Source: Rubrivivax sp. (GTDB lineage Bacteria; Pseudomonadota; Gammaproteobacteria; Burkholderiales; Burkholderiaceae_C). Taken from it: 64,000 bases of DNA. Each line of letters begins with the position of its first letter. The first letter of the stretch is position 1. Below, in pieces: positions 15,959 to 23,399 of the stretch. The position numbers were made by a program, and so were the translations under genes. The stretch spans positions 1 through 64,000 of the forward strand of contig JALHPF010000027.1 of assembly GCA_022842595.1 (NCBI GenBank), given 5' to 3'. The notes beneath the pieces are model-generated. The model had not been told where the DNA came from. It worked only from the letters and a program-made list of their open reading frames with translations, and made no database searches.

Positions 15959-17127
15959 ACACGCCGGGCCTGCCCGCCTACCCGGCCCCGCTGGCCCCCT
16001 GGGCCTGCGACCCGCGCCACACTCGCGGCCGGCGCGTGCCCGAAGCGCCCGCCCCGCCGCGCAACGAGCACCAGCGCGACCGTGACCGCATCGTGCACAG
16101 CACGGCGTTCCGGCGGCTCGTCTACAAGACGCAGGTGTTCATCAACCACGAAGGCGACCTGTTCCGCACAAGGCTGACGCATTCGCTGGAAGTGGCGCAG
16201 CTGGGTCGCTCGGCAGCGCGTGCGCTGCAGCTCAACGAAGACCTGGTCGAGGCCATCGCACTCGCGCACGACCTCGGCCACACACCTTTCGGCCACGCCG
16301 GCCAGGACGCGCTGCACGACTGCATGCGCGAACATGGCGGCTTCGAGCACAACCTGCAGTCGCTGCGGGTGGTCGACGCGCTGGAAGCCCGCTACCCGGG
16401 CTTCGACGGGCTGAACCTCAGCTTCGAAACCCGCGAAGGCATCCTGAAGCACTGCTCGGCGCGCAATGCGGCGCGCCTGGTGCAGGCCGAACCCCAGGGC
16501 CCGGGCCGGCGCTTCGTCGAGGGCACCCAGCCCAGCCTGGAAGCGCAGCTGGTCAACCTGGCCGACGCCATGGCCTACAACGCGCACGACATCGACGACG
16601 GCGTGCGCTCAGGGCTGATCACGCTGGCCCAGCTGGCCGATGTGCCACTGTTTGCCCACTGGAAGCAGCAGGTGCTGGCCGACCACCCGCAGCTGGCCAG
16701 CCAGCCCGGCCGGCGGTTGCTGTTCGAGACTTTGCGCCGCATGCTGTCGGCACAGATGGCCGACCTGATCGCCGCCACCAGCGAAGCGGTGCGCAGCCAT
16801 GCCCCCGCCGACGCCGACGCGGTACGCCGGCTGCCGCCGCTGGCGCGCTTCAGCGCCGGGCTGCAAGCCCAGATCACGGAACTGCAACGCTTCCTCTTCA
16901 GCGCCCTCTACCGCCACCCGCAGGTGATGCACACCACCGCGCAGGCGCGCACGGCCTTGGTCGAACTCTTCGCCGCCTACCGCGCCGACCCCGGTGCCAT
17001 GCCGGCCGACTTCGCCACGGCATCCGACGGCGCCCGCGCGGTGGCCGACTACATCGCCGGCATGACCGACCGCTACGCCCTGCGCGAACATTTCCGGCTG
17101 ACGGGGCGCCGGGTGTTTGCGGACTGA
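15955..17127 (+). CDS. dgt: dGTPase-like HD-domain dNTP triphosphohydrolase
   Basis: HD-superfamily phosphohydrolase that splits dNTPs into nucleoside and triphosphate. It has 390 residues from a GTG overlapping the aroB stop. Metal ligands are seen as H76 in [10 protein letters not shown] and H105-D106 in [11 protein letters not shown], with a further Asp in [24 protein letters not shown] is the usual N-terminal family motif. The gene order aroB-dgt-gltB is common in Burkholderiales; here repeats and a transposase homologue lie between dgt and gltB. Confidence 0.9.
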
Positions 17128-17181
17128 GATGGGGGTTGCCTCGAAGCTTCGACTTTCTCCTGTCGGCCCGTTGCGGTCGTT

Positions 17182-17364
17182 CGTTTCTTGCCTGCTTGGT
17201 CCCCTGCAAAGGCGGGCTGGGGCTGGCTGCGGCGCTTATCCTCGGCGGCCTTCGCTGCGCTCAGGCTGCCCTGCGGCCCAGGCCAGTGGCCTGGGCCTTC
17301 GCCAGGCACAAACAGTCCACTGGACTGTTTGTGTCCGGGCTCAGTGCATCGGTCCCGCGGCCCC
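17182..17364 (-). repeat. Dispersed repeat copy 2, inverted and interrupted
   Basis: The reverse complement of this region matches window positions 1-115. Bases 17205-17235 match 61-91 at 30 of 31 positions, and 17349-17364 match 1-16 exactly. Between the two parts, this copy carries extra sequence that includes the 27-base palindrome at 17307-17333. Confidence 0.75.
17307..17333. repeat. 27-base perfect palindrome
   Basis: Arms of 13 bases (17307-17319 and 17321-17333) are perfectly complementary around one central C. It sits inside copy 2 of the dispersed repeat and is absent from copy 1. In RNA it could form a hairpin only with loss of central pairs; as DNA it could extrude a cruciform or bind a dimeric protein. 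Confidence 0.85.
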
Positions 17365-17483
17365 ATCGCGGAACTCGCTTCATTCGCTGCGCTCATTGCG
17401 CTCAATCACCCGCGATGAGTCAGAGGTTGAACCGCGCTGCGCGCGGGGGCCGCGGGCCCTGTGCTCCTCGGCGCCTCCCATGC

Positions 17484-17514
17484 GCGCCACAGCCAGCCCC
17501 AGCCCACCTTTGCA
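17484..17514 (+). repeat. Dispersed repeat core, copy 3
   Basis: Thirty-one bases matching 61-91 with one difference, in the same orientation as copy 1 and opposite to copy 2. Part of the repeat island before the transposase homologue. Confidence 0.75.
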
Positions 17515-17558
17515 AACACCGTGTCCGGGTCTCCACCGTGGCGCGCCGACACGTGGGC

Positions 17559-17668
17559 GGGCTGCGGGCGTTGGGTGGCCCTGGAGCGAAGTAAAGGAGG
17601 AGACGCCGGCCCGCCAGGGCCGGCGGCGGGGGACATGAGCGCAAGGGGCCACCCAACGTCCGTAGCCC
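17559..17668. repeat. Long nested inverted repeat (REP/BIME-like)
   Basis: Outer arms 17559-17581 and 17646-17668 pair at 21 of 23 positions, with the 13 innermost pairs perfect. Inside the loop a second hairpin has perfect 8-base arms at 17605-17612 and 17617-17624 around a 4-base loop. Nested imperfect hairpins beside a RAYT gene are the usual form of REP/BIME units. Confidence 0.75.
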
Positions 17669-17688
17669 TGGGACCCAGTCGAATCGCC

Positions 17689-17710
17689 AACGACCGCTCT
17701 GGGCCGCAAG
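17689..17710 (+). repeat. Dispersed repeat right segment
   Basis: Matches 116-137 at 21 of 22 positions in the same orientation. In both places it lies about 35-50 bases before a start codon. Confidence 0.7.
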
Positions 17711-17761
17711 CAGTCGATCCCCTTTCTCATGCCCCACGCATAGCGCGTCGCTGACTGCCCC

Positions 17762-18451
17762 ATGGCTCGCCTGCCCCGCCTCGTCATCCCCGGCCTCGCC
17801 CACGTGGTCGTGCAGCGTGGCCATGGCGACCGGCCGGTGTTTACCGACGACACCGATCGGGCGAACTATCTCGGCGCACTGCGCGAATCAGCCCCCGCCA
17901 GTGGCGTGCAGTTGCTGGCCTGGGCGCTGCTGGACGACCAGGTGCTGCTGCTGGCGCAGCCGGACGCCGCCACGGGCATCAGCCGCCTGCTGCAGGCCGT
18001 CGGGCGGCGCTACGTGAGCGCCTACAACCGCCGCCATGGCCGCGCCGGCACACTCTGGGACGGGCGCTTCCGCTGCGCCCCGGTGGAGCCGGGGGCCACC
18101 CTGCTGGACCTGCTGGTGTGGATAGACGGGATCACGCCCGAAACTCGACACACCAGCGCCAGCGTGCGGCTGGCCGGACGGCCCGACGCCCTGCTGGCCC
18201 ACCCGGCGGGGTTCTGGGGTCTGGGCAACACCCCCTTCGAGCGCGAAGCCGCCTATCGCCGGCGGCTGGCCGATGGCGTTTCAGCAGCCCAGGCCCATCG
18301 CTGGCAGCAAGCAGCCCTGGGTGGCTGGGCCATCGGATCGACGGCGTTCACCGGCGAACTGGCCCTGCGAGCGCAACGCCCGGTGCGCCCGCGGCCGCCA
18401 GGTCGTCCGAAGAAGGACAAGAGCCCGGGTAATGGCACACCATGTGCTTGA
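17762..18451 (+). CDS. RAYT/IS200-like transposase homologue lacking HUH histidines
   Basis: A 229-residue protein with the overall pattern of Y1-type REP-associated tyrosine transposases: MARLPRLVIPG start, HVVVQRG strand, then GRRYVSAYNRRHGRAGTLWDGR compressed near residues 81-102, which keeps candidate catalytic tyrosines Y84 and Y88. The HUH motif normally reads NHVHLL; here the aligned segment is DQVLLL (59-64), so both metal-binding histidines are replaced (Q60, L62). That predicts loss of nicking or a changed chemistry. The C terminus is basic. It lies between repeats and gltB with no partner gene. Confidence 0.8.
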   Translation: MARLPRLVIPGLAHVVVQRGHGDRPVFTDDTDRANYLGALRESAPASGVQLLAWALLDDQVLLLAQPDAATGISRLLQAVGRRYVSAYNRRHGRAGTLWDGRFRCAPVEPGATLLDLLVWIDGITPETRHTSASVRLAGRPDALLAHPAGFWGLGNTPFEREAAYRRRLADGVSAAQAHRWQQAALGGWAIGSTAFTGELALRAQRPVRPRPPGRPKKDKSPGNGTPCA

Positions 18452-18487
18452 GCGGCCATCGCTGTCCACGCGACCGTTTCCATAAAG

Positions 18488-18553
18488 ATTGTCCCCATAT
18501 TCAGGACGTCACTGGCTGCTGTTTCTCTTTAAGTGTCTGACCCCGATTGATTT
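18488..18553. repeat. Possible mobile-element right-end sequence
   Basis: Downstream of the transposase homologue are two A+T-richer tracts, ATTGTCCCCATATT at 18488-18501 and TGTCTGACCCCGATTGAT at 18534-18551. Both resemble the TGTCCCC/GGGGTCAGAC-type sequences often found flanking RAYT-like genes. I recognise the pattern but cannot find the matching left copy in this window. Confidence 0.35.
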
Positions 18554-18644
18554 CCTTGCCGCTCTTGCTGCACTGCGGTAAGTTCCGCCGTCGGCCGAAA
18601 TGCGCACCCCGCCCCAAGGCCCCAGCCCTGCCCCGGAGAAGACC

Positions 18645-23399
<4,755 letters not shown>

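What the first reader, a model, noticed from the sequence alone, without database searches (positions are those of the whole stretch)
17762..18451. RAYT-like transposase homologue without HUH histidines
The protein aligns in order with REP-associated Y1 transposases, including the R-Y-x4-N and GTLW region, but the segment that should read NHVHLL reads DQVLLL. Both metal-binding histidines are gone while the frame is intact and the rest is well kept. This suggests a domesticated or non-nicking member, perhaps a repeat-binding protein, rather than simple decay.
Basis: partly seen in the sequence, partly recalled or inferred. Interest (0 to 1): 0.72.

Follow-up and report, generated by a model that had tools for sequence, protein, structure and literature searches.

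The report
Dead transposase kept beside glutamate-synthase gene
A former DNA-cutting "jumping gene" enzyme sits next to the glutamate synthase gene in most sampled members of a large bacterial family, has lost its cutting chemistry many times (here entirely) while the gene and the element's old end sequence stayed, and may now work as a DNA-binding switch for that gene.

The parts
17762..18451 (+). Gene X: Y1/RAYT-fold protein of 229 aa, all four catalytic residues lost
17939..17947 (+). Former HUH motif: residues 60-62 read Q-V-L instead of H-x-H
18119..18136 (+). Former Y-x3-N-P motif: W120 in place of the nucleophilic Tyr, no Asn at the aligned place
18215..18244 (+). C-terminal motif W-x-L-G-N-T-P-F-x-R (residues 152-161); its conserved columns are kept in 96-100% of HxH- and 92-100% of HxH+ homologues
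18386..18415 (+). Basic tail RPRPPGRPKK (residues 209-218); G-R-P at 97-100%
18490..18496 (+). Site A, TGTCCCC
18536..18544 (+). Site B, TCTGACCCC, the same letters as the right end of 9 of 25 order-level relatives
18556..18584 (+). Promoter-like TTGCCG-17-TAAGTT before gltB; position conserved in the family, but not passed by the strict scan
18600..23399 (+). gltB, glutamate synthase large chain (the likely regulated gene)
   Evidence: name from sequence recall; neighbours by tblastn
15959..17127 (+). dgt (dGTP triphosphohydrolase-like); start approximate, stop 17127
   Evidence: name from sequence recall
17157..17706 (.).

Best explanation
Gene X descends from a terminal-repeat-flanked Y1 transposase (TIRYT, TnpAY1 subclass 2.1 type) that came to lie between dgt and gltB and was kept as a host gene. 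In the window it can hardly cut DNA: both metal-binding histidines, the nucleophilic tyrosine and the third metal ligand are gone. Proposed mechanism: X still recognises its old end sequence through retained residues and its C-terminal domain, binds sites A and B just upstream of the gltB promoter, and so adjusts glutamate synthase transcription. Shown by computation: homology and fold, position, active-site loss, selection, conservation of the sites, match of site B to ends of mobile relatives. Inferred: an old insertion and vertical descent, that X binds these sites, and that binding regulates gltB.
For: 190 of 200 family genomes and 58 of 60 congeners have a match, own genome included. 263 of 280 distinct homologues fetched have gltB next on the same strand (median gap 118 bases, largest 1031). 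132 of the 263 lack HxH; none of the 132 keeps the Asn ligand and 23 keep the Tyr. A quick gltB tree (255 rows) needs at least 30 changes; in 12 supported independent pairs the third ligand goes with HxH in 11.6, p 0.0005. All 263 ORFs are 200 aa or more and end in a stop. dN/dS against the nearest congener is 0.168 (NG86) or 0.066 (YN00). R3, R6, Q78, R82, G96, W99, R102 and the conserved columns of WxLGNTPFxR are kept in 96-100% of HxH- forms. 24 of 25 order-level relatives (20 genomes) without gltB in reach keep H, H, Y and N, against 106 of 263 at gltB, p 2e-8. The A-B pair (3 or fewer mismatches) is in 113 of 132 HxH- and 109 of 131 HxH+ gaps, against 14 of 1315 Markov controls. End-like motifs stand on both sides of 13 of those 25 relatives (shuffles 0.06%), and the right one contains site B exactly in 9. 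The exact pair occurs once in the window's genome, before gltB. In three family genomes where X was not found and the DNA before gltB is readable, the pair is absent.
Against: There are no binding or expression data. HxH- forms evolve faster (median dN/dS 0.238, n=35, against 0.141, n=27, p 0.002), so constraint is partly relaxed. Three of six family homologues without gltB in reach (L079, L095, L181) are also dead, so loss of catalysis is not confined to the gltB site. A and B could be bound by another factor or be promoter elements. 41 of 263 gaps lack the pair at 3 or fewer mismatches; 29 of these still hold B with at most one mismatch. 8 of 25 unlinked relatives show no right-end motif. 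Two of 24 gltB loci from genomes without a linked X show the pair by the same rule in 500 bases (L333 with 3, L335 with 2 mismatches). L312 has the pair but no X in its genome's match list, its contig ending just upstream. In the genus scan 8 of 36 exact hits lie away from X (my count). A solved relative binds folded single strands, not double-stranded operators (PMC8266576, passages). The strict promoter scan finds none before gltB in the window.
Confidence: 0.52

Rival explanations
1. Sites A and B are promoter elements or sites of another regulator of gltB; X is a domesticated protein that does something else (for example binds single-stranded DNA or hairpins) and stays beside gltB only by descent.
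For: The promoter-like core before gltB persists, by eye, in one genome without X, A and B (L310), so gltB does not need X everywhere. In the window's genus X lies -8 to 77 bp behind dgt in 43 of 44 loci measured, as if in an operon with it. NtrC control of gltBD is reported for some betaproteobacteria (PMC5343134, passages).
Against: Site B is also the right end of 9 of 25 of X's unlinked relatives, and A and B are missing before gltB in three family genomes where X was not found.
Confidence: 0.25
2. X is a dominant-negative guard: it binds the ends of related mobile elements and blocks their transposition; the gltB site is merely the relic of its own insertion.
For: HxH- forms keep the scaffold; related elements with such ends have near-identical copies in another family of the order; weaker second homologues occur in some congeners (foot, not examined).
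Against: The window's genome has no other Y1_Tnp match (genome about 95% complete) and its exact A-B pair occurs once, so there is little to guard against; site B would not need conservation at gltB.
Confidence: 0.12
3. Slow decay: the gene is useless and drifts.
For: Higher dN/dS in HxH- forms; no match in 10 of 200 family genomes.
Against: 0 of 263 gltB-linked ORFs is under 200 aa; dN/dS well under 1 in HxH- pairs; C-terminal motif columns 96-100% conserved in HxH- forms.
Confidence: 0.05
4. X still cuts DNA with a rebuilt active site.
For: 23 of 132 HxH- linked forms keep Tyr and 31 keep the second His.
Against: The window has none of the four residues. The first His is replaced by E, Q, R, A, S, V or G in different homologues. 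Columns that rise in HxH- forms (such as D29, H92, A184) were not tested as ligands.
Confidence: 0.03

Closest known systems
TnpAY1 subclass 2.1 (Bertels group 1, TIRYT), PMC6006769 and PMC3733652
   Same: Median length 238 aa, Y-x3-N-P class, extra C-terminal domain, no REP found by those authors, prevalent in beta-, delta- and epsilonproteobacteria; terminal repeats with GGGGWSAS
   Different: Listed with HUH and Tyr motifs; sequences without them were taken as probably non-functional and left out (722 of 924 kept). Here 132 of 263 gltB-linked loci sampled lack HxH, yet stay open and selected
E. coli TnpAREP (4er8)
   Different: TnpAREP cuts REP hairpins (PMC8266576, passages); the window protein lacks H, H, Y and N
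TldR, nuclease-dead TnpB repressors (PMC13418256, passages; Wiegand 2024 not held)
   Same: Repeated inactivation of a protein of IS200/IS605-type elements, stable link to a host gene, transcriptional role (shown for TldR, proposed for X)
   Different: TldR is RNA-guided and derives from TnpB; X has the Y1 transposase fold and would read its own fossil end

Membership tests
Y1 / RAYT fold | HUH-fold core as in TnpAREP | tested here: met
Active Y1 transposase (TnpAY1) | HUH histidines | tested here: not met
   Q60, L62
Active Y1 transposase (TnpAY1) | Nucleophilic Tyr in Y-x3-N-P | tested here: not met
   W120, no Asn
NCBIfam REP_Tyr_transpos NF047646 | Score over the curated cut-off | tested here: not met
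   20.8 bits against 80; 127 of 137 members of A1 match at E 0.01 or better
Pfam Y1_Tnp PF01797 | Score over the gathering cut-off | tested here: not met
   16.8 bits against 23; 93 of 137 members match at E 0.01 or better
REP-associated transposase (RAYT sensu stricto) | Flanked by REP palindromes with GTAG | not tested
   No targeted search for GTAG repeats was made
TIRYT | Inverted terminal repeats with GGGGWSAS on both sides | tested here: inconclusive
   Right-type site present in the window (GGGGTCAGA on the other strand, 18536); no left motif in the 110 bases before X. Both sides found in 13 of 25 unlinked relatives
TldR-like domesticated dead regulator | Transcriptional effect on the linked gene | not testable with these tools
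   Needs expression data

The most novel reading that the evidence does not exclude
Much of a bacterial family uses a Y1 transposase as the dedicated regulator of glutamate synthase, with the transposon's own end frozen before the gltB promoter as operator; once the protein acts as a switch, its cutting chemistry is dispensable and has been lost many times in parallel. This would be the TnpA counterpart of the TnpB-derived TldR repressors.
Probability: 0.42. Interest if true: 0.88.

Novelty: new variant of a known kind. Interest (0 to 1): 0.78.

Why it matters
A published classification of this superfamily took proteins without HUH and Tyr as probably non-functional and left them out (PMC6006769, section 6). 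Here such proteins form a conserved, selected, position-fixed group. Because intact and dead homologues sit at the same locus with the same candidate sites, the role of catalysis can be separated from that of binding by comparing living species. If the regulator model holds, it shows how a transposon end becomes an operator and ties a domesticated transposase to central nitrogen metabolism.

Tried and rejected
Rejected or not upheld: (1) The hairpins at 17307-17333 and 17559-17668 as X's target: they lie in a dispersed repeat (143 BLAST matches, itself included; 30 others of 150 bases or more), and 43 other congeneric loci have a dgt-X gap of -8 to 77 bp. (2) R-Y-x4-N as the nucleophile. (3) Plain decay. 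(4) Loss of the left end as a consequence of catalytic death: raw counts look strong (59 of 131 HxH+ and 7 of 132 HxH- loci keep it, p 1e-14), but independent pairs on the tree do not support it (3.1 against 1.5 of 12). (5) Hairpin arms around site B lost in HxH- forms: raw means 4.9 against 3.5 of 7 pairs (p 8e-10), not supported on the tree (3.5 against 0.8, or 1.6 against 1.8, of 12, by cut-off); a lead only. (6) Rfam: no match in 16500-19000. (7) The strict sigma-70 scan found nothing in 18400-18700. (8) The change count depends on the tree: 14 on X's own tree (196 rows), 30 on the gltB tree (255 rows); both are quick trees.

Literature: listings showed no title or abstract start on a transposase linked to gltB or on a catalytically dead RAYT; they cover only the held open-access library. 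Bertels 2017 was not held. Seen: PMC6006769 abstract, sections 6, 11, 15 (part 1) and 31, and passages; PMC3733652, PMC2817692, PMC8266576, PMC13418256 and PMC5343134 passages only.

Sampling and dropped rows: of the 190 family genomes with a match, the 145 that score best against the window's own dead protein were fetched, so the dead share is not a population estimate. By source, HxH- among gltB-linked loci: 52 of 140, 46 of 49 further congeners, 28 of 61 named loci, 6 of 13 order loci. The named loci are the best 80 of a capped scan. Two of the 58 congeners (G231, G255) have only weak matches, and the weaker second matches were not examined. Identical proteins were counted once (297 loci to 280). 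13 distinct homologues had no gltB in reach and 4 were cut by contig ends. 8 linked loci had too little gltB for the tree. Pairs with NG86 dS outside 0.1-1.0 were left out of the medians; YN00 failed for many pairs. A1 holds the window and 136 of the 138 homologues listed. Order loci are the top rows except G265 and two already held; the 25 unlinked ones come from 20 genomes, four from G324, and 'without gltB' means none in the fetched 2-3 kb, less at contig ends. The genome search reported one stop inside some matches (for example G081, G044); my ORF ends there, still over 200 aa. gltB upstream DNA was readable in 4 of 10 family genomes without X and 23 of 24 order genomes; 5 of those 23 have some other match to A1.

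Full report

The active site is wholly gone. In this class the nucleophile and third metal ligand form Y-x3-N-P (PMC6006769, PMC2817692). The profile alignment with 4er8 puts Y115 and N119 on the columns of residues 120 and 124. In the window the Tyr is Trp and no Asn aligns.

It is a position-fixed gene. Of 200 genomes drawn from the family 190 have a match, and of 60 congeners 58, own genome included; in roughly 150 of the 190 it is the only match (my count of the table). I fetched 297 loci: the 145 best of those 190 genomes, 52 further congeneric loci, 80 named loci (among them Rubrivivax, Ideonella, Roseateles, Variovorax, Polaromonas, Janthinobacterium) and 20 from the order. They give 280 distinct proteins. 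263 have gltB next downstream on the same strand, 13 have none in reach, 4 are cut by contig ends. gltB-linked forms also occur in other families of the order (13 of 20 loci by the table; 2 of 20). In the window's genus 50 of 55 loci lack HxH.

Catalysis was lost many times, largely as a unit. Among the 263 linked proteins, 131 keep HxH and 132 do not. Of the 131, 116 have Asn and 15 His at the third ligand, and 113 have Tyr. Of the 132, none has Asn, 3 have His, 23 have Tyr and 31 keep the second His. On a quick tree of the neighbouring gltB (255 rows) the HxH state changes at least 30 times; on X's own quick tree (196 rows, catalytic columns left out) at least 14 times. In 12 supported independent pairs the third ligand goes with HxH in 11.6 (p 0.0005); the Tyr follows in 5.4 and does not differ in 6.5, so Tyr is less tightly coupled. 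The sample was ranked by similarity to the window's dead protein, so the share of dead forms is not a population estimate: it is 52 of 140 among the linked loci of the family draw and 46 of 49 among further congeners.

The dead forms are not wrecks. None of the 263 ORFs is under 200 aa or lacks a stop. Window against its nearest congener L131: dN 0.123, dS 0.737, ratio 0.168 by NG86, 0.066 by YN00. HxH- pairs have median 0.238 (n=35) and intact pairs 0.141 (n=27), p 0.002: purifying selection in both, weaker in the former. Columns that fall by over 40 points in HxH- forms include H15, N22, R23, Q24, N59, H60, H62, Y120, N124, P125 and R127 (numbers of L012). Kept are R3, R6, Q78, R82, G96, W99, G101, R102, the C-terminal W-x-L-G-N-T-P-F-x-R and G-R-P.

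Unlinked relatives give a contrast, with exceptions. Of 27 order loci examined, 25 (20 genomes) have no gltB in the fetched stretch; 24 of these keep H, H, Y and N (L284 does not). The two at gltB (L349, L353) are dead. All four residues are present in 24 of 25 unlinked against 106 of 263 linked, p 2e-8. Left out of that test are six family loci without gltB in reach, of which three are dead (L079, L095, L181). One genome carries four copies that are 97-100% identical over about 790 bp or more, so that element moves or moved lately. End-like motifs stand on both sides in 13 of the 25 (14 of all 27; shuffles 0.06%), such as AATGGGGTCAGAC on the left and GTCTGACCCCATT on the right. The right one holds TCTGACCCC exactly in 9 of 25, and in 8 of 25 the stop codon TGA lies within it; 8 of 25 show no right motif. 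This fits the TIRYT end consensus GGGGWSAS (PMC3733652, passages).

The same sequence sits before gltB. Site A (TGTCCCC) and site B (TCTGACCCC) lie 46-48 bp apart in 150 of the 152 gaps in which a regular expression finds both. With 3 mismatches or fewer the pair is in 113 of 132 HxH- and 109 of 131 HxH+ gaps, and in 14 of 1315 Markov-made gaps. Of the 41 gaps without it, 29 still hold B with at most one mismatch. Site B alone with at most one mismatch is in 112 of 132 and 122 of 131, against 40 of 1315. The middle of the A-B spacer carries almost no information, and B is more conserved than the promoter-like hexamers behind it. These hexamers score 8 or more of 12 in 98 of 261 gaps against 15 of 261 with the part behind B resampled. 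In the window A is 18490-18496, B is 18536-18544, then TTGCCG-17-TAAGTT at 18556-18584; the strict scan did not pass it. The exact pair occurs once in the window's genome. Over 60 congeners there were 36 hits in 33 genomes, 28 right behind X by coordinates and 8 elsewhere, with 2 hits of the reversed control pattern.

Controls without X. Ten family genomes had no match to X; gltB was found in 7 and its upstream DNA was readable in 4. L310, L313 and L315 lack the pair. L312 has it, but its contig ends 242 bases before the anchor, so X may be missing only from the assembly. Of 24 gltB loci from 23 order genomes (18 without any match to A1, 5 with some other match), 22 lack the pair at 3 or fewer mismatches in 500 bases and two show it (L333, L335); 10 have a dgt match in the fetched stretch. 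That hints that dgt and gltB were neighbours before the element came between them; the exact order was not checked in each.

Reading. The simplest account is a TIRYT-type element that inserted between dgt and gltB, left its right end before the gltB promoter and stayed because its protein acts there. Binding without cutting would explain why the catalytic residues go and the rest stays. That X binds A and B, and that this controls gltB, is inference. The main rivals are another factor at A/B, and a guard against related elements. A similar path is documented for TnpB: nuclease-dead TldR repressors (PMC13418256, passages).

Limits. All evidence is comparative. Loss counts depend on quick trees. 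Two further leads (left end kept mainly in HxH+ loci; hairpin arms around B weaker in HxH- loci) are strong as raw counts but fail on independent pairs. Whether X would read single- or double-stranded DNA is open: relatives bind folded single strands (PMC8266576, passages). The C-terminal domain alone could not be folded and searched.

Noticed in passing
window 17157-17706: Dispersed repeat, 97% identical to a copy elsewhere and with 30 further matches of 150 bases or more in this genome, several at contig ends; it separates dgt from X only here among 44 congeneric loci measured.
   Followed up: partly
genome G000 (window's own): No Y1_Tnp match at E 0.1 other than X itself in a genome rich in dispersed repeats.
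   Followed up: no
L022, L026, L033, L061, L065, L112: Homologues that keep HxH and the Asn ligand but have lost the nucleophilic Tyr (C, S, H or A in its place): a possible intermediate step of inactivation.
   Followed up: partly
L017, L018, L022, L029, L040, L071, L252: A set of HxH+ loci that keeps a site B (exact or near) but lacks site A before gltB.
   Followed up: no
L342, L343, L360: Unlinked relatives with repeated copies of the end motif on one side, which may be how the A-B tandem arose.
   Followed up: no
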